The notes beneath the pieces are model-generated. The model was not told the DNA's origin. It did not search any database and worked only from the letters and a program-made list of their open reading frames with translations. This document shows positions 26,201 through 44,225 of a stretch of 64,000 nucleotides of DNA, one piece after another. This DNA is from Lophium mytilinum. Its lineage: Eukaryota; Ascomycota; Dothideomycetes; Mytilinidiales; Mytilinidiaceae. Positions within the stretch are counted from its first letter, which is position 1. Every line of letters begins with the position of its first letter. The DNA lies in assembly GCA_010093605.1 (NCBI GenBank), contig MU004200.1, positions 130,155 to 194,154 of the forward strand, read 5' to 3'. Position numbers and translations under genes: made by a program.

Positions 26201-27076
26201 TCAAAGAACTGAAACTGCTTTGCCCTCCGATCCAAGCAGGACAATGCACTCCTCTACCGCCTTCTGCATCTCTTTTGTCGCCTCCTCTATCAACGCGGTA
26301 AAAGGAATCTTCCCCGACTTCTCCGCCCACACCTTTTGGCAAGGCGCATTCAACACCTTGTTAATGTTCACCTTACTAACCCCATGCTGAATACACTTCC
26401 CGAATATCTCCTTCGTAAATGGATCCGACCCATGTAGTACAAGCTCAACCTTGTTTCCAACCTTCTTGTCAATACTATCCAGCCGCTCGTACTCCAGCTG
26501 CACACCACGGGGCCCGTAATTCCCATGCACATTCCCAAATGCCGGTGCTAACCAATCAATCCCACAGTCTACGAACTCCTGCGCTTCCTCCGGCGTCGTG
26601 AGCAAGCCCTCCAGATCCGCGGTGTCGCTCACGCCATCCTCCCCGCCCTCAATCCGGCCTGGCTCCGCTTCAACAGCTATCCCCCGCTCGTGGCAGTATT
26701 TCGTTAACTCTGTCGTTAATCGTAAGTTCTCTTCCTTCTCGTAGTGCGACATATCCACCATTATGCTGTCGAAGCCACCCATGTCTGCCGCCTGCCGTAC
26801 GATCTCGGGCGTTTGCGCGTGGTCAAGGTGGACGGAAACTGGGACCGAAGAGCCTCGGGCGGCTTCGGCGGCGAGGTGGACGAGGAGCCCGCCTGCGTAT
26901 TGGATTGCCCATGGGAAGAGCAAGATCATGGCAGGTGAGGACTTGGCTTCTGCAGCGCGGACGGTGGCGAGGATGCCTTCGGTGTTGTAGCAGCACATGG
27001 AGGGCACGCCGTATTTGTTCTTACGGGCGTGCACGAGAATAGGAAGGGCCCGGTTCTCCTTCATCGTGGAAGCCAT
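26201..27076 (-). CDS. class II (zinc) ketose-bisphosphate aldolase family protein
   Basis: Single exon, 291 residues. Metal-dependent aldol cleavage or condensation of a sugar phosphate. The TIM-barrel zinc aldolase motifs are all visible: SVHLDHAQ (first zinc His), EAEPGRIEGGEDGV (zinc-bound Glu/active loop), FGNVHGNYG (second His), VLHGSDPF (third His and phosphate-binding loop) and KVNINKVLN. It is not the glycolytic enzyme, which is longer and has a GGSGS-type phosphate loop; it resembles the tagatose/tetronate-type aldolases. The start at 27076 (MASTMKEN) was chosen because the open frame upstream is unconserved. It is divergent from the threonate-dehydrogenase-like gene, and the same two domains are fused in plant proteins such as At1g18270. 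Confidence 0.88.
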   Translation of the reverse strand: MASTMKENRALPILVHARKNKYGVPSMCCYNTEGILATVRAAEAKSSPAMILLFPWAIQYAGGLLVHLAAEAARGSSVPVSVHLDHAQTPEIVRQAADMGGFDSIMVDMSHYEKEENLRLTTELTKYCHERGIAVEAEPGRIEGGEDGVSDTADLEGLLTTPEEAQEFVDCGIDWLAPAFGNVHGNYGPRGVQLEYERLDSIDKKVGNKVELVLHGSDPFTKEIFGKCIQHGVSKVNINKVLNAPCQKVWAEKSGKIPFTALIEEATKEMQKAVEECIVLLGSEGKAVSVL

Positions 27077-27703
27077 TGTGGTATTCTTTGAGGCTGGAGT
27101 GGAGGTTTTAGGTTGGGTGTTGTGGAATCGTGGATGCGAATGTAGTATGGAGTGAAGATGGGTGAGTAAAGGCCTCAATTGACTGGAGCAGCTCGTACCG
27201 GCTTTCCTTCCGACACTCGGCTTTCTGTTCAAATGCCGGCACACTTGCCCCGATATTTTCTTCGGGCGATCTTGCAGCGACGCATTTTCTACGCCGTCGA
27301 ACATGACGTTGCGGCGCTGCTGCGGGGTATGGCGGGGCAAACATGGTATGATATCTACTCGAATTTCTTATAGGCTCTCTATTTATCCGGCTCTTTGCAT
27401 TATTTTACCGGAAACAATCATTAGTCCAGTAGGTGTAAGCTCTCTCAAAAGTAAAACTCTAACTGTGGGTCTAGCGGAATACCACATTAGGTCATCAGCG
27501 GAGCGTGAAGCTTCAGTACTCTCGTATTTAGGGCTCCACTAAAGTTCGATTTCAGATTCCGGAAGATTAGCTATTCCTTCAATTGACTTTTAGTCTGCTT
27601 GTCAATCTCTTCTTTGCAATTCCCAGCTGTCCATTTCCATCTCTCATCAACCTCTTACACTTAACCCATCAAACCTCGCTTACAACACTTCTTCATCACC
27701 AAC
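27077..27703. promoter_or_regulatory. divergent promoter of aldolase and dehydrogenase genes
   Basis: 627 bp between two divergent starts. Co-regulation of the two metabolic genes from this region is likely but no known operator was identified. Confidence 0.45.
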
Positions 27704-29120
27704 ATGCCAAGCAAAGCCCCCATCGGCTTCTGCGGCCTCGGCGCCATGGGAATGGGAATGGCCACCCATCTTGTCAAAACCGGCCATCAAGTCAAAGGCT
27801 TCGACCTCTACCGGCCCTCTCTGCAGCGCTTCGAAGCCGCGGGCGGTACCCCATCGCCATCCCTCCTAAACTCTGCAGTCGATATGCCCTTCTACATCGT
27901 CATGGTTGCGACCGCCGTGCAAGCTCAGAGCGCCCTGTTCGGTACCGCTGAAGGTGGGGACGAAGGTATCGTGCACAAGCTACCGCAAAACGCAGTACTG
28001 CTCCTTTGCTCAACCGTCCCCGCGTCATACGCAGTGAGCGTAGAGCGGGAACTGAAAGAAATCGGGAGGGGCGACATCTTCTTCATCGACAGCCCGGTGT
28101 CTGGGGGCGCGTTCCGGGCTGCGGATGGGACGCTGTCTATCATGGCGGGTGGGGCAACTGCAGCGCTGGAGAAGGGGATGTGGCTATTAGAGGCGATGAG
28201 TGCACCTAAGAAATTGTTCGTCGTTGAGGGGGGAATTGGGGCGGGCAGTAATATGAAGATGGCACATCAGGTCCTTGCTGCGATTCAGATACTCGTGACG
28301 GGCGAGGCGTATGGGTTCGCGGCGCGGTTAGGACTAGATGCGGAGAGTGTCAGAAAAGAGATCGTGGAGGGTGAGGCATGGAGCTGGATGGTCGAGGATC
28401 GAGGGAGGAGGGTTATTGCGGGCTTAGATGCATGGAGGCCTGGTGTTAGTGCGCTGACGATTATATTGAAAGATACCGTAAGCTCCAGTGTGTTCTTTTC
28501 GTCAAATCAGATCGATGTGGATTAATGCTGGCTGAACTAACATCTTAAAGAGCATCATCACATCTTCAGCGCGTCTCTGCAACTTCCCCGTACCAATGGC
28601 ATCCGCTGCTGAGCAGGTCTATTTCTCCGGTCTCTCGCAGGGCTTCGGCTCCGAAGATGATGCGGGAATGGTCCGACTTTACTACCCTGGCCCAGTCGCT
28701 GACGTCAAATGCACTGTCGACAAAGAAGCAAAGGCTGCCAAACTGAAGCTTGTCGTAAACATGCTCATCGGCATCTACGTTTGCGCCACGGCAGAGTCAA
28801 TTGCGTTTGCCCAGCGAGTCAACCTGCCGTTAGACCAGCTACACGAGCTTGCTGTTGATGCAGCGGGCGGAAGTCACGTGTTTCGAGAGGTTGGCGCACA
28901 AATGATCAAAGGATTGAAAGGGGATGCTTCGGCGTGGTCAGGACTTGGAAAACGGTTGGAAGATGTAACGCAGGGCTTGTCGGAAGCTGCCAGTGAGGCA
29001 CAGAACTTGAAATGCCCTGCATTTCTAACGAACACTGCGCTCAGTATGTTGATGCTGGCTAAAAGAACTGCGGACAAGGATGCGTCAGCGGCAACCGCAG
29101 TAAAAGTGTGGAAATCGTAA
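27704..29120 (+). CDS. beta-hydroxyacid dehydrogenase with two C-terminal domains, LtnD-like
   Basis: NAD-dependent oxidation of a hydroxy acid of the L-threonate or 3-hydroxyisobutyrate type. Two exons (27704-28477, 28551-29120) give 447 residues. The Rossmann domain (1-165) has GFCGLGAMGMGMA and the substrate loop SPVSGGAFRAADGTLSIMAGG. A first NAD_binding_11-like helical domain (about 175-290) holds the catalytic Lys in AGSNMKMAHQVL. A second similar helical domain follows (about 320-440, LKLVVNMLIGIYVCATAE, with another candidate Lys). Bacterial LtnD has one copy (about 300 aa); the duplication matches the long fungal and plant forms. Its divergent neighbour is a class II aldolase. Confidence 0.87.
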
Positions 29121-31515: not shown

Positions 31516-34500
31516 CTATGAGTCTACCGAGTACTCATCAATAACGCTCTTCGGCTTGACAAATTTCCCAAGAGGCTTATACTCTAAATGATCGAGCCCA
31601 AACCCCTTAGGACCGCCAATTTCAATCCCGCGAGGTGTAGAAGTCCACCTATCTGACGCTGTGATCCCCAATACGGTCACCAGTAGACCATATCTGTACT
31701 CAGGCGTCCCAATAGCCTCACCATTCTGAGCATCAATGACAGCAATGAGATCCGGTACGATAGCGAGCTCGTCCTCGCTTCCATCCTCATTCATCTTCAT
31801 AGCAGCAATGTTCTCGTTCTTGAACGGGATCTTGATCTTCCCAGAAAACTCCGATGCTTTATCCGCACCTCCGTCGCTGATATCGGCGCCTTCGATGATG
31901 ACTTCGCCGTAGACATGGCCCATTCGAAGTGTTCTTTCAACCCCCACAATCTTGCCTTTGAAGAGGACTTGAGCGGTTTCAGGCCCTCCTACTTCATCGA
32001 TAATCGATTCCGCTACGTTGTCAATGCGATTGTGTTTTCTTGCTTTCGCGACCGCGCGCCCTATTCTCCAGGATAAGGATATCGTGTGCTCAACAACCCA
32101 CCTCTTCGTCTCTGCTCCAGTCACAGGACCTTCCGCGCAACCAACATGCGAACCCAACTGCGCAAGCCCTGCTCGAAACACCTTCTCCACGGTAAGGTCA
32201 CTCGAGGCTTTGGGCATATACACCACGTTTCCGTTGCCATCTGTCATCACGATTGGGCAGAAGACGGGTCGCCGTTCGTCAAAAACCACTGGGGTGGTCT
32301 GCCACTTTGTGGGATATGCGCGACCCATCCAGTCGCCGTCGACAGTTGGGATGTCCATATTCGTGCTGGCACCGAGGATCATACCTTGGAGACCGTTACC
32401 GCCGCCGATTTCGAGCGCGATCATGTGGGTTGCTCGCCCACCCTTGAAGAGGGCATAGAGCTCTTCTTGTGCCTGTAACATTCTTTCGCAGGATTAGCTC
32501 AAAGAATGTGGGAAGATGTGACCGATAGAACTCACTCATCACCTTGTAGCTTCTCAATGCCCACGGTCGGTGACCCAGCCCCTCCTCCGCAGCCGATCAG
32601 ATCGTCATCTTTCAGGTCGTATGGATTGATCACTCTTATGACACCGCCTGCCCGTAAGATGCTACGCATTCGAAGCATGCTGGAGTACGGACTGCCGCCC
32701 CCGCCAGTTCCGAGGATATAGCAGCCGATTGTTATATAGCTCAAATCGGTTTCACTTACGTACCACGTCCGATTCTCAACTCGTGGCTTGTAGGTCTCAA
32801 GCTCCTCCTCTTTGACGACAATCTCTATCTCATCTTCCGTTTTCTCCTTCGACGCCTGGTTGAACTCCTTCATCTCGTCATCCGCCTCTTCGTTTCCCGG
32901 TATATGGAGATGCTCAAAGTCGCTAGCACGGGAGAAATCGAAGTCTCCAGCTGCCCGAACGATGAACCTTGTTTTGTGCGCAATATATTGCAGCGGTAGA
33001 GTTTCGACCTCAACGATCTTCACGGAATCTCGAATTGCGCCAGCTTCCACCGTTTTTTCTACGGCCTCAGCCGAGATCTTCTCTAGAAGTTGTTTCGTGT
33101 TCTTCGTCTCGGTAGACTTAACGGTATCAATCACGGCACTTACTCGAGCCATGGCGGCGCCAATTGCGTTGGCTACTCCGGACCACTTTGGTTTGAGAAC
33201 CTGACTGGCGCCTAGCAAATTGTCTGGTGCAATAACGGCTCCGCCTCCTACCAGCAGGACTGGGAGATCTTCGGGAGATGTCTTCATTGTGTCGATGACT
33301 TTTTCTAGCATCTTCTTCACGGTAGCTTGGTACTCCGCGGCTTCTGCTACTGTGATGTTTGCCACTAGCGAAGCATTACCTATGCCAAGCGACGGATCTG
33401 AAGCTACAGTGTAGTCCGTGGCTGTATGTACATCGCCGCCAAATACAAGTGCCTTCTTTGGTAGTTTGTATCCGACTGAGTCTGGGCCGACGGTCATTTT
33501 CCCTGCTACAGTGCGGACAAGTGAGCCACCACCTAGGCCTACACTACGAAGAGTTAGCATGCTTCGGTCTATACAGAAGTTGAACCAAACCTCGAACATA
33601 CCTCTTGACATCAGGACAAGAAAAGTTCATTCTCACGCCAGACAGTTCACTATACGCAGCTTGCTGTCGTGGAAAGCCATTCGCTAGTAGCAAACCGACA
33701 TCCGTCGTCGTTCCACCTGTCCCATTGTCATTCGCCGAACTACTAGATCATTGCCAACATACTCACCAACATCGACCACCATCATAGCCTCCTTAATCTC
33801 ACTCCCCACCAAAAATGCTGCACCTCTCATACTATTCGTCGGCCCACTCGAGAATGTTCTAATCGGCAACCTCGCCGCCGCATCACCACTCAAAAGAGTC
33901 CCATCATTCTGCGTAATGAAAACCGGGCATTTCAGACCCAGCTTGTGGATTGGCTCCTGGAAACTCCGTATCGTCTTCTTCGCAAACGCGAGAATGCTCG
34001 CGTTCAAAATCGCCGCGTTCTCGCGCTCCAGAAACCCTAGATTCGCTACCTCGGCGCTCAGCACTACGTCCACCCCCGGAATCTCCTCACGGACGATGGC
34101 GGCGGCGCGTTCTTCTTGTCTCTCTACCGTGTCGATGGGGCTGAAGACGCCGTTGACTACCACGCTCTTGATACCTTTGGATTTGATGATGGCGCATTCG
34201 CGGCGGATCTCAGCTTCGTCCAGAGCACTGATAAGATTGCCGTCGACTTCGAGTCCACCTTTGACGAGAGCGTAGTAGCCTAGGATTAGGCGGCGCATAT
34301 CGGCGGGCCAGTCGACGCAGGGGGGTGCGTGCTTGGAAAAAGGCCCGCAGAGGCGGAGCACAGCGACGCTCGAAAGGCGGGAGGAGTCGCGGGTGACGAC
34401 TGCGTTCACGAAGTGGGTGGTTCCGATTGTGACGGATGCGATTGAAGTGGGTGATACGGAAGCCGCGGTGAACATGGTCTGGATGGTTGATATAATGCCC

Positions 34501-34708
34501 GCGCTCGGGTTTGGGGTTGTAGGGGATTTGTGCCTGGGGAGTCAACGTGATTTGAGATTTCTGAATGATTAGGGGAGAACTACCATGCTATTATGCCTTT
34601 GTCTGGCTCTGAAGCTCGTGATGGGTCAAGGATTACACCGTCTGTATTAGTCCCTCCGACGTCGACGCCTATGCGAAGGGTTTTGGAGGGGATTGGAGTG
34701 GAACCCAT
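31516..34708 (-). CDS. hydantoinase/oxoprolinase-type ATPase fused to DUF917
   Basis: Predicted ATP-dependent or metal-dependent ring-opening amidohydrolase of cyclic amides (hydantoins or 5-oxoproline-like). Five exons (34708-34584, 34533-33767, 33716-33602, 33543-32536, 32482-31516) give 993 residues. Hydant_A_N covers about 8-185 (RIGVDVGGTNTDGVIL phosphate loop); hydantoinase A about 200-540 (SSGPTNSMRGAAFL, DVGGTTTDVGLL, VGLGGGSLV, VGPDSVGY); DUF917 fills the C-terminal 360 residues (GTGGGGSPY, ALEIGGGNG, GDWMGRAYP). The last intron uses GTGAGT and an internal AAAG acceptor to restore frame. No targeting signal, so cytosolic. It is divergent from an NCS1 permease, the transporter class that imports hydantoins, allantoin and pyrimidines. 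The exact substrate is unknown. Confidence 0.9.
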
Positions 34709-35435
34709 CTTGTCTATTGTTGAGAATTCTGAGGTCGTGATTTGGCAGTAGATACCCTGAGATGCTTCCTCCCTTTGCTTCTCTTAGCTATCCAGAAGCT
34801 AAAGGAATCTGAAGGGTGAGGATGAGTTAACGTTGGGAAATCACGTGCTAGTCCGATATCGGTATCTGATGATCAGATACCCCTGACCCTAGTCACTCTT
34901 CACTGCGGGGTTTGTCTTTGCTCCCACCCACCTTTCAGATATGTGTATCTTGAATGTTTTCTACGATACCATTAGTATAAAGTTAATATCAAGCCCATCG
35001 CTTCAGATGCGGGAATGTCCGACGGGTTTGCAATATGTAATCCGACAACACCTATCACCACTCCGGGACTTATCCTTCCGACAACCCCAGGAAGCTGTCA
35101 GGCTGTCTGACTTGTCCATGTTTGGTCTAAACAGCAGCGATAGACGGGCCCAGTCTGGGGTAGAACTGCCAACAAGGTGTCGGATACGCTATCAATACGA
35201 CGGTGATACGCACCTTGCTGCCGATCTGGCGATAACGTGAGTCGGCCGACGTTCACACTCTCCACTCTTGCTCTCTGTCTCACGCTGTAGTCGTACAAGC
35301 AATACCGACTTAATCCCGTGTCACTATCTTATCCGAACCTCAACTGCCGTCCCAAGCATGTAAAGACTCCAAACTCCCGCCCCCAACCGAGAGAATTACT
35401 CGAGACGCGCTTCTATCCTCGACAATTCGTCCAAG
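34709..35435. promoter_or_regulatory. divergent promoter of hydantoinase and NCS1 permease
   Basis: 727 bp between two divergent starts. GATAC/GATCAGATAC-type sequences near 34870-34880 contain GATA cores, the site of fungal nitrogen GATA factors, but such short sites occur by chance. Nothing else stands out. Confidence 0.4.
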
Positions 35436-37373
35436 ATGGCCCTCCGCCACCGTCTTCAAAAGATTCGCGAAAAGATTCAATTGCACGGTGACGATGAGCA
35501 GCACGAGCAGACAGATTCGTGGAGCAACCGTGACCTAATTCCCCTCCCGCCTGCACGGCGAACATGGGGCTGGTTTCATTTTTTCGGCTATTGGGCCATC
35601 AGTAGCTTGAATATCTCGAATTGGCAGACCCCGAATTCGTTCCTGAGTAAGTGCTTTCGGGGCCTTTCATGCTGCCTGAGATTCAGCGTGGAGAAAATCT
35701 AGAAGATACTAATTGCGCCCTAGCTCTTGGACTCTCAGTAGGCCAGTCCATGCTGATCATCGTGGTCGGCCGTCTACTTATTGCCATGTTCTCTACGCTC
35801 ATTGCGTGGTGCGGCTTGGAATGGCATATCGGTTTCACGGTGCAGAACCGGTATACTTGGGGCATGCGAGGGAGCTACATTCCCCTTTTGCAGCGCATTC
35901 TACTCAACTTCATCTGGACAGCTGTGCAATGTAAGAAGCATCTTCCACATCTCACAGTATATAAAAGCTCATTCCCCACTAGGCTGGAATGGCGGACGAC
36001 TTATTGCGTGAGTGCAAGCTCCCAGATCAATGAAAGTGCTATCACTAACCCCCCAAAGCGTCTGCATAACCGCCATATGGCCCTCCTTCGCGCGCATCCC
36101 AAACACCCTCTCCGCCTCCATGCCCACGACCACGTACCAGTTCGTCGGCTTCATCCTCTTCTGGACTTTCAGCACCCCGTTCCTCCTCATCCGCCCCGAG
36201 AAGTTCAAGCTCCCGTTTCAAGTCGTGTCCCTCTACTGCGGCATCGGCATGCTCTGCATGATGACATGGGCGCTCGCGACGGCCCACGGCGTCGGCCCGC
36301 TCTGGAGCACCGGTACCGCCATTCCGTCGACCAGCATGTGGAACTCGAGCTGGCTGATCATGGCGGGCATCAACCAGATGATCGGCGGCATCGCGGCCGG
36401 CATCACCAACGGCAGCGACTTCAGCCGCTACGCGCGCGGCCCGGCCCACTACGTCGGTGGCACCGTCGCCTCGGCGTGGATCGTGGGTGTCATGGTAAGT
36501 TTCATCGGGCTGGTCACGACGAGCGCCGCGCAGAAAATCTACGGCGAAGTCTACTGGAACCCGCCCGACCTGCTTATGGTGATGATGGACAGCGGGAACG
36601 GCTCCTCTAAAGCCCGTGCCGGCGTCTTCTTCCTCTCCCTCGGCTTCGCGCTGACGGCTATGTTCGAGAACATCTGCGGGAATGCGGTGGCTGGCGGTAT
36701 TGACCTGGCGGGGCTGTTCCCGCACTACATTAACATCCGTCGTGGAGCCATCATCACTTTCATCGCGGCGTGGGTGGTGCAGCCCTGGCAGCTGATTAAC
36801 AAGGCGACGACATTTATCCAAGTGCTGAGCTCGTTTTCGGTGTTCCTGGCGCCTCTTATTGGGGTCATGGCGACTGATTATTATATTCTGAGGAGCCGGA
36901 AGGTGAAGTTAAGTCATTTGTATCGGACACACGATAGCGATTACTGGTATTGGCACGGGGTCAATTGGCGCGTTGTCCCGGCTTGGCTCGCCGGCTGGGC
37001 TCCAACAGTAGGTGGGTTAGTCGTCACCGTTCAAGCAAAGGAGAATCCACCGAGGGGATTGGTGCAGCTATATTATATGGCTTTCTTGATTGGTGAGTCG
37101 TGATTCCTTGAGTTTAACATTTGGATGCTAATCTGTGGTTTAGGGTTCTTTGTGAGCAGTACCGTGTTCTTAGTACTCAACAAAATCTTCCCGAGGGCGG
37201 GGATGGGCGAGTATGACGAAGTCGATCTCTACGGAACTTTCACGGCCAAAGAAGCAGCGCGTCTAGGAGTGATGAGACTGGAAGACTCCGGGGATGTTAT
37301 TGAAGGAGAAGAGCGGGTTGTAGATGTAGAAGACAAGAAAGGCACAACCGAAGAAGTGGTTGAGAAGAATTGA
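35436..37373 (+). CDS. NCS1 nucleobase/allantoin-type permease (Fur subfamily)
   Basis: Proton-coupled plasma-membrane importer of a small nitrogenous ring compound (uracil, allantoin, uridine, hydantoin or thiamine class). Five exons (35436-35646, 35724-35930, 35983-36007, 36059-37092, 37144-37373) give 568 residues; exon 3 is only 25 nt. The N-terminus NRDLIPLPPARRTWGWFHFFGYW is the Fur signature, followed by NISNWQTPNS (TM1) and NRYTWGMRGSYIP. About twelve hydrophobic segments are visible; TM6 holds NGSDFSRYAR and TM8 FENICGNAVAGG. The cytosolic tail is acidic (EGEERVVDVEDKK), as in turnover-regulated permeases. Its divergent hydantoinase neighbour suggests a cyclic amide as substrate. Confidence 0.93.
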
Positions 37374-38156: not shown

Positions 38157-39089
38157 ATGGCCACCACTCCCCCTGACGGCCACCCACCTGTGGACTGGAC
38201 CAAATGGGAGCCAGCCGGCGACGGCGACGGTAAGTCACAGAAATCTAATAGCCAATCTATCCCCAATATCCTCTCTAAAACTCCCAAGTCCGCTCCCCAT
38301 GCCCCATGATCAACGCCCTCGCAAACCACCACGTGCTCCCGCACAACGGCAAGAAGATCACGAAAGAAATGGCCATCACCGCGCTCGTCGACGCCATCAA
38401 GCTCGACTCCAAAATCGCCACCGTCTTCGCAGGCTACGCGGTGACCGCGAACCCAGACAGCGCCGCACACTCGTTCGACCTCGATATGGTCGATAAGCAC
38501 GGTTTGATCGAGCACGACGTCTCGCTCTCCCGCAGCGACTACGCGCTCGGCGACAACCACACCTTCGACAAGGGCGTGTGGGAGCGCGTTATGAGCACGT
38601 ATGAGGGGAAGACAGAGACGGACTTTGCGACGGTGAGCGAGGCGCGGTATGGGCGGGTGTTGGCAGCCAAGAAGGCGCATGAGGAGGCGCAGAAGACGTT
38701 TGAGTATGGCATTAAGGAATTTGTGCTGAGCTATGGGGAGTCGGCGCTGTTTCTGGGGATTTTGGGTGATCCGAAGGAGGGGAAGATTCCGGTGGAGTAT
38801 TTGAGGGTGTTGTTTGGTAAGTCAGCTCCACGTTTTAAGGAGGAGGAATCTATTTGGGGGGTTCGTGAAGCTGATTATATGCGTAGAGCAGGAGAGACTC
38901 CCGTTCAACGAGGGCTGGCGACCCAATGAGAAGGTTGTGACGCAGACGGATATGAATCATCTGATCTTCAAGCTTATCATGGCGAACCAGCATAAGGCTG
39001 CCGAGGCCGCAGAGGTGGGTTTGGGGTCAGTTCATGCTGTTGCCTCAGCAGTTACGAATGTCATGCCGACATACTGCACGATCATGTAG
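38157..39089 (+). CDS. short heme-thiolate peroxygenase (chloroperoxidase family)
   Basis: Predicted unspecific peroxygenase or chloroperoxidase that uses H2O2 to oxidise organic substrates. Three exons (38157-38229, 38289-38816, 38887-39089) give 267 residues, the size of family I (short) enzymes. The proximal heme ligand Cys lies in SPCPMINALANHH and the acid-base Glu in IEHDVSLSR; PCP plus EHD is the family I signature. A further typical segment is EQERLPFNEGWRP. No signal peptide is present, so the protein is probably intracellular, unlike secreted CPO. The next feature downstream is a transposon starting about 150 bp past the stop; the coding region itself is intact. Confidence 0.9.
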
Positions 39090-43469: not shown

Positions 43470-44225
43470 CTACTCGCCACCCCCCTCCAACATCGGCCAC
43501 CCATCACTAGGACGCCCTAGCATAGCCGCCGTTGCGGAAGACAACGCCGCAATGTCCGCCGCCGGCGGCTTCCAGTTCCGCAGCGGCGGGTCCGCAAGAT
43601 CGCACACACGACCCTTGCATCCCGCCTGCGATTGCCGCACCCAGTCGACCCTCAGCATTCCCTTACTCCCGTCCTTGATAGCGGGATAGCCAATCAGCAC
43701 GTTGCCGCAGTCGGTGGCCCCGAACGCCACGAGGCTCTCGAGGAGCTCGGTGATTTTGTCGCCGGAGATGCCGCCCTTGGTGTTGTCGGGGAAGACGCAC
43801 ACGCCGCTGAGGTCGAAGAGGTAGTGCTTGTTTCTGTGAGAGGAGGTTGGTGTTAGTAGCGGGTTCTACGGTAAGGGATAGTGGGAACCGTCGGGGGGCT
43901 TACGAGGTGCAGACGATGTGTTGGCCGTCTTGGTATATCATTTCTTTGTTGATAAGCCTCGAGGCTTCGACGAGTTCGGGCAAGTGGTTGCCGCCTATGG
44001 GGAGTAGAGCTGTTAGTGATATTCCTACTAGCCGATTATGTTTCGCCAATATGGTTGCCACTTACCTTGCGACTTACCGCAGCCATCGTTTTCATCGTCA
44101 TCGTGGATGACCCTTGGGCTCCATGAGGTGCAGACCATGTCGGTCGTGCTGAACGAGGCCGCTGCCGCAGGAGCTGCAAACAAGGCCAAGAAGCCGAGAG
44201 CGAGGGTGGAAGTTGAGAGATGCAT
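43470..44225 (-). CDS. small secreted KP4-like cysteine-containing protein, intact
   Basis: Three exons (44225-44066, 43994-43904, 43833-43470) give 204 residues. A clear signal peptide (LALGFLALFAAPAAA) precedes the mature chain. The body matches the layout of the fungal chromosomal KP4-like family: IYQDGQHIVC, then GVCVFPDNTKGGISG and a helix followed by FGATDCGN. Eight or so cysteines would form disulfides. About 45 residues after the domain (KPPAADIAALSSATAAMLG) are extra. Family members in filamentous fungi are secreted and their roles are mostly untested. The gene looks whole. The family assignment rests on cysteine spacing and a few motifs, so it is moderate. Confidence 0.72.

What the first reader, a model, noticed from the sequence alone, without database searches (positions are those of the whole stretch)
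31516..37373. Divergent pair: hydantoinase-DUF917 enzyme and NCS1 permease
A 993-aa hydantoinase/oxoprolinase fused to DUF917 shares a 727-bp promoter region with a Fur-type NCS1 permease. NCS1 carriers import hydantoins, allantoin and pyrimidines (established for Mhp1, Dal4, Fur4). The pairing suggests an uptake-and-ring-opening module for a cyclic amide. DUF917 has no settled function. That the two form one pathway is inference.
Basis: partly seen in the sequence, partly recalled or inferred. Interest (0 to 1): 0.75.

Follow-up and report, generated by a model that had tools for sequence, protein, structure and literature searches.

The report
Fungal importer and fused ring-opening enzyme
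Two neighbouring fungal genes, a membrane importer for small ring molecules and a fused enzyme that probably uses ATP to open such a ring, look like one nutrient-uptake unit, because many bacteria keep the same kinds of genes side by side.

Summary
Gene A (34708→31516, minus, 5 exons, 993 aa) fuses a hydantoinase-A (HyuA) ATPase half to DUF917. Gene B (35436→37373, plus, 5 exons, 568 aa) is an NCS1 permease. They share 727 bp. No Hydantoinase_B domain is matched, so A is not a classic oxoprolinase. It corresponds to a bacterial two-gene pair, short HyuA plus DUF917: adjacent in 77 of 80 loci, fused in 0 of 80.

What raises the pairing above coincidence: an NCS1 permease lies within 3 kb of HyuA in 34 of those 80 loci. 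In phylum samples, one DUF917 locus per genome and 7-kb flanks, NCS1 is present in 16 of 40, against 2 of 60 Hydantoinase_B control loci. The 8 bacterial NCS1 proteins classified are closest to CodB, the fungal one to TIGR00800/allantoin permease, so this enzyme type seems to have met NCS1 more than once.

Best explanation: import plus ATP-dependent attack on a small cyclic amide or ureide. The substrate is unknown, no fungal genome could be searched, and the top-ranked bacterial relatives use peptide-type ABC importers. "DUF917 has no settled function" is partly outdated (NCBIfam desulfurases), but A falls far below those cut-offs.

The parts
31516..34708 (-). Gene A: HyuA-DUF917 fusion, 993 aa; exons 34708-34584, 34533-33767, 33716-33602, 33543-32536, 32482-31516
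   Evidence: Spliced model; Pfam; alignments; conserved residues
33405..34675 (-). HyuA-type ATPase half of A (Pfam matches aa 12-382; PF05378 + first 170 positions of PF01968)
   Evidence: 40-47% identical to 12 of 13 prokaryotic short HyuA rows and 34% to the other; window coordinates worked out by hand from the exon model
31570..32750 (-). DUF917 half of A (PF06032 + PF20906, aa 601-976), interrupted by intron 4
   Evidence: 25-34% identical to 17 prokaryotic DUF917 rows; 38 of 39 invariant residues kept; window coordinates worked out by hand
34709..35435 (.). 727-bp shared divergent intergenic/promoter region
   Evidence: composition and motif counts
34861..34881 (.). Perfect 21-bp palindrome GGTATCTGATGATCAGATACC inside the shared region, candidate site for a dimeric regulator (inferred)
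   Evidence: one of 2 perfect inverted repeats (arms at least 10, gap at most 3) in 64 kb; mean 0.23 per mononucleotide-shuffled window (30 shuffles)
35436..37373 (+). Gene B: NCS1 permease, 568 aa; exons 35436-35646, 35724-35930, 35983-36007, 36059-37092, 37144-37373
   Evidence: PF02133 E 2.6e-90; Mhp1 in PDB E 3.6e-22; W135, Q139, N356, W246 aligned to Mhp1 W117, Q121, N318, W220, while Mhp1 Q42 and G219 align to N59 and S245

Best explanation
The pair is a two-gene nutrient-uptake unit. B, an NCS1 symporter, imports a small cyclic amide or ureide of hydantoin/dihydropyrimidine-like shape. A then activates the ring. Its HyuA half is an ATPase that, as in HyuA of oxoprolinase, hydantoinase and caprolactamase, would phosphorylate the lactim oxygen of the ring amide. 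The fused DUF917 half, which stands where HyuB would be, would supply water to the activated carbon and complete ring opening, or displacement at that carbon. Gene A is an in-frame fusion of a prokaryotic HyuA-DUF917 gene pair in the HyuA-first order. Divergent transcription from one 727-bp region, perhaps through the palindrome at 34861-34881, would co-induce both. Shown: the gene structures, domains, conserved residues, the prokaryotic pair, and prokaryotic NCS1 linkage above control. Inferred: membrane location, ATP use, reaction, substrate class, co-regulation.
For: Domains and kept conserved residues. The fusion corresponds to adjacent genes (77 of 80 loci; 119 of 152 plasmid records cover at least 80% of A). 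NCS1 within 3 kb in 34 of 80 loci and Opp-type ABC importers within 6 kb in 21 of 80, both in 0 of 80, as expected if the enzyme needs one importer. Phylum samples: with 7-kb flanks and one DUF917 locus for each of the 40 positive genomes, NCS1 in 16 of 40, and in 15 of the 28 where HyuA adjoins DUF917, against 2 of 60 Hydantoinase_B loci (Fisher p 3.8e-6); with 1.5-kb flanks 17 of 55 against 0 of 88. Annotated permease-DUF917-HyuA neighbours in 4 of the 14 annotated plasmid loci of this pair that I read, two with a PucR-family regulator. B keeps the Mhp1 ring-binding Trp117, Gln121 and Asn318. Best solved match of the HyuA half is N-methylhydantoinase. The division of labour between A and B subunits is described for oxoprolinase in passages of PMC6061476.
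Against: No fungal relative could be examined, so conservation of the pairing in fungi is untested. The top-ranked whole-length plasmid matches that I read (Shinella, Roseateles) have peptide-type ABC importers, not NCS1. 25 of 80 loci have neither importer type, some on short contigs. In the phylum samples 24 of 40 DUF917 loci lack NCS1, among them all 6 of the Pseudomonadota sample. The ring-binding residues of B matter in NCS1 members generally (PMC4195764 passages) and two other Mhp1 site residues differ, so they do not point to hydantoin; passages of PMC11633122 stress that NCS1 specificity is hard to read from sequence. No significant GATA-site excess in the shared region (5 sites, shuffle p 0.083). 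DUF917 has no structural match at E 0.001 or below beyond an uncharacterised protein.
Confidence: 0.62

Rival explanations
1. Chance neighbours: B is an ordinary uracil/allantoin/uric-acid NCS1 permease and A works in an unrelated intracellular pathway.
For: Divergent fungal neighbours are often unrelated (recalled). No shared-promoter test was decisive: GATA sites not significantly enriched. The top-ranked plasmid relatives of A that I read use ABC importers, not NCS1, and 24 of 40 sampled DUF917 loci lack NCS1.
Against: Prokaryotic NCS1 linkage of this enzyme type: 34 of 80 loci, 16 of 40 against 2 of 60 controls. The palindrome in the shared region is rare in the window.
Confidence: 0.2
2. 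A is a carbon-sulfur cleaving enzyme: DUF917 acts like S-methyl thiohydantoin or thiohydantoin desulfurase, so the unit handles thiohydantoins, for example from ergothioneine breakdown.
For: Pfam names the DUF917 domains S-Me-THD-like. The NCBIfam models that match this half are NF058532 S-methyl thiohydantoin desulfurase (43.7 bits) and NF058529 thiohydantoin desulfurase (24 bits). Most fungi make ergothioneine (start of the abstract of PMC9516567 in a search listing).
Against: Both scores are far below the curated cut-offs (450 and 440). As recalled, those desulfurases act without a HyuA ATPase partner, while the HyuA type of this fusion has DUF917 beside it in 77 of 80 loci. NCS1 carriers are not known to carry such acids (recalled).
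Confidence: 0.13
3. A is a 5-oxoprolinase-like enzyme of glutathione salvage.
For: The HyuA half matches 5-oxoprolinase 6yra (E 5.4e-16; profile 2.2e-35).
Against: No Hydantoinase_B (PF02538) domain among the matches in A. The best solved match is N-methylhydantoinase. 5-oxoproline is made inside the cell and would not need an NCS1 importer (inference).
Confidence: 0.05

Closest known systems
Bacterial cytosine permease - DUF917 - hydantoinase/oxoprolinase gene sets (Geobacillus, Pediococcus, Sodalis, Lactiplantibacillus plasmids; chromosomal loci)
   Same: Same three functions side by side: NCS1 (PF02133), DUF917, short HyuA
   Different: Three separate genes; DUF917 before HyuA in those four plasmid loci; NCS1 closest to the CodB model (8 of 8 tested, all below its cut-off) instead of the TIGR00800/allantoin-permease models of B; I found no functional test of them in the papers searched
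Shinella/Roseateles HyuA-DUF917 gene sets with Lrp/AsnC regulator and dipeptide-type ABC importer
   Same: Top-ranked whole-length relatives (39.4-40.5% identity) and the same HyuA-first order as the fusion
   Different: Importer is an ABC system, genes not fused
ATP-dependent hydantoinase / 5-oxoprolinase / caprolactamase (HyuA + HyuB)
   Same: HyuA half with the N-terminal and ATPase domains
   Different: No HyuB matched; short HyuA without the C-terminal part of PF01968; DUF917 in HyuB's place
S-methyl thiohydantoin desulfurase (NF058532)
   Same: Same DUF917 superfamily
   Different: 43.7 bits against a cut-off of 450; here an ATPase half is fused
NCS1 beside dihydropyrimidinase or allantoinase in bacteria (and Mhp1 with hydantoin enzymes, recalled)
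   Same: NCS1 importer next to a cyclic-ureide hydrolase; the top-listed plasmid relative of B sits beside dihydropyrimidinase in Caballeronia, and the features under two other matches include allantoinase (hit table)
   Different: The hydrolase there is annotated as dihydropyrimidinase or allantoinase, not HyuA-DUF917

Membership tests
NCS1 nucleobase-cation symporter family (B) | PF02133 over the whole model | tested here: met
   303.8 bits, model 1-440 of 440
NCS1 nucleobase-cation symporter family (B) | TIGR00800 ncs1 curated cut-off (a subfamily model) | tested here: not met
   322.6 bits against 353.1, E 3.6e-96; so B is filed under the Pfam family, not under this subfamily model
NCS1 nucleobase-cation symporter family (B) | Ring-binding residues of Mhp1 (Trp117, Gln121, Asn318) | tested here: met
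   W135, Q139, N356; roles from passages of PMC4195764; Mhp1 Gln42 and Gly219 align to N59 and S245
NCS1 nucleobase-cation symporter family (B) | Ten-helix 5+5 core plus two helices | tested here: inconclusive
   Crude hydropathy scan only, overlapping segments; alignment to Mhp1 over residues 28-458
Fungal Fur subfamily (Fur proteins of A. nidulans, Fur4, Dal4) (B) | Groups with characterised Fur proteins in a tree | not testable with these tools
   No fungal protein collection; only prokaryotic models, best after TIGR00800 being PRK11375 allantoin permease at 177.2 bits against 620
HyuA/HyuB ATP-dependent hydantoinase/5-oxoprolinase (A) | HyuA N-terminal and ATPase domains | tested here: met
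   PF05378 and PF01968 above cut-off
HyuA/HyuB ATP-dependent hydantoinase/5-oxoprolinase (A) | Hydantoinase_B half (PF02538) | tested here: not met
   Absent from the Pfam matches of A at E 0.001; A is not filed as a HyuAB enzyme
HyuA/HyuB ATP-dependent hydantoinase/5-oxoprolinase (A) | ATP-dependent ring hydrolysis | not testable with these tools
   Needs purified protein
DUF917 / S-Me-THD-like superfamily (A) | PF06032 and PF20906 above cut-off | tested here: met
   180.8 and 222.1 bits against 27 each; 38 of 39 residues invariant in 36 prokaryotic rows kept
S-methyl thiohydantoin desulfurase, NF058532 (A) | Curated equivalog cut-off | tested here: not met
   43.7 against 450 bits
Prokaryotic HyuA-DUF917 pair (A) | Short HyuA directly beside DUF917 | tested here: met
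   As a fusion; adjacent on the same strand in 77 of 80 loci, fused in 0 of 80, and fused in none of the 100 loci

The most novel reading that the evidence does not exclude
HyuA-DUF917 is a third kind of ring-opening enzyme, beside HyuA-HyuB and the metal amidohydrolases. HyuA makes a phospho-imidate of a cyclic amide, and DUF917, whose named relatives hydrolyse a chemically similar S-methyl thio-imidate, attacks that activated carbon. Fungi carry it as a single chain with its own NCS1 importer, a pairing that arose independently of the bacterial CodB-type pairing.
Probability: 0.35. Interest if true: 0.7.

Novelty: new variant of a known kind. Interest (0 to 1): 0.47.

Why it matters
If true, it gives the DUF917 superfamily a testable reaction scheme, an ATP-activated partner and an importer, and gives fungi an uncharacterised route for using a cyclic nitrogen compound. 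The single-chain fungal version can be expressed as one protein, so the ATP dependence and substrate of the HyuA-DUF917 pair become directly testable.

Tried and rejected
Tried without result: own-genome search (none held); viral contigs with A, with the HyuA alignment and with B (no relative); paper searches aimed at the fungal pair and at thiohydantoin desulfurases, where neither the listings nor the passages that I opened characterise the fusion (passages of PMC12732919 and PMC9505000, only name hydantoinase/oxoprolinase genes among regulated fungal genes); GATA-factor sites in the shared region (not significant); substrate clues from the two loci with the best-scoring DUF917 (10 frames scanned: biotin carboxylase-type protein, dehydrogenase, solute-binding protein, arginase-family protein and others; no consistent theme); structural matches of DUF917 (at E 0.001 or below only 2o3i, uncharacterised). 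A quick tree of HyuA (104 rows, one of them fungal, drawn from a midpoint root) puts the fungal row in a group of 78 rows (support 98), in a weak three-row group (82) with a Shinella plasmid row and a row on a very long branch, so I name no donor lineage.

Rejected: that A is a 5-oxoprolinase (no HyuB matched); that A is an S-methyl thiohydantoin desulfurase as such (scores a tenth or less of the cut-offs); that the ring-binding residues of B prove hydantoin transport (they are general to NCS1).

The 55 and 88 loci include several per genome and have only 1.5-kb flanks, so a permease beyond a neighbouring HyuA would be missed. I therefore repeated the comparison with 7-kb flanks: one DUF917 locus for each of all 40 genomes with a match (one of them, L272, a below-cut-off match), against 60 Hydantoinase_B loci, which are the 20 top-listed per phylum with one match per genome (G060 twice), out of 28, 116 and 72 matches listed; some are cut by contig ends and one control locus also holds a HyuA-DUF917 pair. 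The controls gave 2 of 60, not zero. NCS1 was detected with profiles that I built from fungal B and bacterial NCS1 proteins (E below 1e-10), which may miss other branches. Fisher p values are nominal, because genomes within a phylum are related. The 14 annotated plasmid loci were picked from the hit tables, partly for diversity, not at random. The palindrome was noticed after looking, so its rarity is suggestive only.
Full report
What is there. The window comes from a eukaryote with short GT-AG introns, consistent with a filamentous ascomycete (inference); no genome is held for it. Gene A runs on the minus strand from 34708 to 31516 with four introns of 50-58 nt and encodes 993 aa. Gene B runs on the plus strand from 35436 to 37373 with four introns of 51-77 nt and encodes 568 aa. 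The start codons are separated by 727 bp. Pfam finds in A the HyuA N-terminal region, the first 170 of 291 positions of Hydantoinase_A, and both DUF917 domains (now 'S-Me-THD-like'); in B it finds the full NCS1 permease model. Hydantoinase_B, the second half of oxoprolinases, is not among the matches.

A is a fusion of a prokaryotic gene pair. tblastn against plasmids matches A in 152 records, of which 119 cover at least 80% of it in one place; in 23 of the 40 rows listed, two annotated genes named hydantoinase/oxoprolinase and DUF917 lie under the match (13 rows have no annotation there, 3 only DUF917, 1 a hydantoinase plus a hypothetical protein). A scan of one-per-species prokaryote genomes with the HyuA alignment kept the best 80 loci. 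In 77 of 80, a strong DUF917 frame lies on the same strand within 300 bp of HyuA, and in 0 of 80 are they fused. Both orders occur: 60 HyuA-first and 33 DUF917-first adjacent pairs, a locus counting more than once, so the HyuA-first order of the fungal fusion has prokaryotic counterparts. A keeps 58 of 63 and 38 of 39 invariant residues in the two halves, so both halves look functional. In a quick tree the fungal HyuA falls among the prokaryotic rows, but its nearest neighbour is not resolved.

The pairing with NCS1 is not special to this window. In the 80 loci, an NCS1 permease lies within 3 kb of HyuA in 34, an Opp-type ABC importer within 6 kb in 21, both in 0, neither in 25. Of the 14 annotated plasmid loci of this pair that I read, four show cytosine permease next to DUF917 and HyuA, and two of these have a PucR-family regulator upstream. 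A table in PMC7513527 (passages) lists the same three proteins of L. rhamnosus under consecutive accession numbers. To control for selection I took samples of about 120 genomes in each of three phyla. PF06032 occurs in 26 of 119, 8 of 119 and 6 of 120 genomes; Hydantoinase_B occurs in 19 of 119, 63 of 119 and 52 of 120. With one DUF917 locus for each of the 40 positive genomes and 7 kb on each side, NCS1 is found in 13 of 26, 3 of 8 and 0 of 6, together 16 of 40; in the 28 loci where HyuA adjoins DUF917 it is 15. Of 60 Hydantoinase_B loci it is 1 of 20, 0 of 20 and 1 of 20 (nominal Fisher p 3.8e-6). An earlier count with 1.5-kb flanks and several loci per genome gave 17 of 55 against 0 of 88. 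The link is strong in the Bacillota sample, present in the Actinomycetota sample and absent in the small Pseudomonadota sample, where Opp-type importers are seen in 2 of 6 loci.

The NCS1 branches differ. All 8 bacterial NCS1 proteins tested score best with the cytosine permease model, though below its cut-off. B scores best with TIGR00800 (322.6 bits, below its 353.1 cut-off) and the allantoin permease model (177.2, cut-off 620), and barely with cytosine permease (24.0). The 20 plasmid relatives listed for B are only 24-28% identical; the first sits beside dihydropyrimidinase, and the features under two others include allantoinase. The simplest reading is that the same enzyme type was joined to an NCS1 importer at least twice, which argues for a shared small-ring substrate. 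B aligns with Mhp1 and keeps Trp117, Gln121, Asn318 and Trp220 as W135, Q139, N356 and W246, while Gln42 and Gly219 are N59 and S245. Passages of PMC4195764 say the first three hold the hydantoin ring and matter in other NCS1 members too, so they support ring transport but not a particular ring. Passages of PMC11633122 stress that NCS1 specificity is hard to read from sequence.

Mechanism. Passages of PMC6061476 describe subunit A of oxoprolinase as the phosphorylating half and subunit B as needed for hydrolysis of the phosphorylated intermediate, and expect the same of caprolactamase. Here HyuA is present and DUF917 stands in the place of B. The predicted structure of a bacterial DUF917 (mean pLDDT 93.9) matches only 2o3i, an uncharacterised structural-genomics entry, at E of 0.001 or below, so no resemblance to HyuB was found and its chemistry cannot be read from a known fold. 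NCBIfam carries two desulfurase equivalogs in this superfamily; A scores 43.7 and 24.0 bits against cut-offs of 450 and 440. A passage of PMC11055893 calls DUF917 uncharacterised, suggests hydantoinase-like ring hydrolysis and notes enrichment in cyclodipeptide oxidase clusters. My inference is that HyuA phosphorylates the ring amide and DUF917 delivers water to the activated carbon.

Regulation and expression. The shared region holds a perfect 21-bp palindrome at 34861-34881, one of two such repeats in the window, and five HGATAR sites, which is not significant (shuffle p 0.083). In Clonostachys rosea (PMC5999205, section 3.1 read), 41 genes changed in mycoparasitic contact and six rose with both prey species. 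Those six include a 'hydantoinase/oxoprolinase' (2.7 to 16.5 and 16.5) and an NCS1-type uracil permease (5.3 to 50.0 and 82.3). Whether that hydantoinase is the DUF917 fusion is unknown, and the gene numbers are not consecutive, so this is a hint only.

Surroundings. Pfam scans of 30 other stretches of the window, chosen mostly from its longest frames, show no carbamoylase, amidase, racemase or zinc-cluster regulator near the pair. The nearest recognisable neighbours are a family-2 peroxidase gene (38306) and an aldolase/dehydrogenase pair (26204-29117). The module therefore appears to be just these two genes, though short exons may have escaped.

Verdict. The substrate is open, and conservation in fungi is untested here. 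The paper searches aimed at the fungal pair listed no paper that, in what I opened, describes it; they cover open-licence PubMed Central papers only.

Noticed in passing
34853-34881: Perfect 21-bp palindrome GGTATCTGATGATCAGATACC (34861-34881) in the shared intergenic region, overlapping a second short palindrome CCGATATCGG (34853-34862, seen by eye); possible dimeric regulator site.
   Followed up: partly
26204-27340 (-) and 27665-29117 (+): Divergent pair: class-II fructose-bisphosphate-aldolase-type gene and two consecutive frames with NAD_binding_2 and NAD_binding_11 dehydrogenase matches; reminiscent (recalled) of four-carbon acid sugar catabolism.
   Followed up: partly
38306-38926 (+): Family-2 peroxidase gene (PF01328) downstream of the permease.
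   Followed up: no
43470-43865 (-): Reading frame with a Kp4-like domain match (E 3.5e-07); described only.
   Followed up: no
L013-L092: In HyuA-DUF917 loci the importer is either NCS1 (34 of 80) or Opp-type ABC (21 of 80), both in 0 of 80: an importer swap around the same enzyme.
   Followed up: yes
L009 3648-8540, L010 2346-9806: HyuA-DUF917 beside AroM-family and M20-family genes, with an OPT transporter and an Asp/Glu racemase-family gene in L010, suggesting further processing of ring-opened amino-acid derivatives.
   Followed up: no
L069 11232-15544: Locus of the best-scoring DUF917 relative (38% identity) carries a solute-binding protein and an arginase-family protein nearby.
   Followed up: partly
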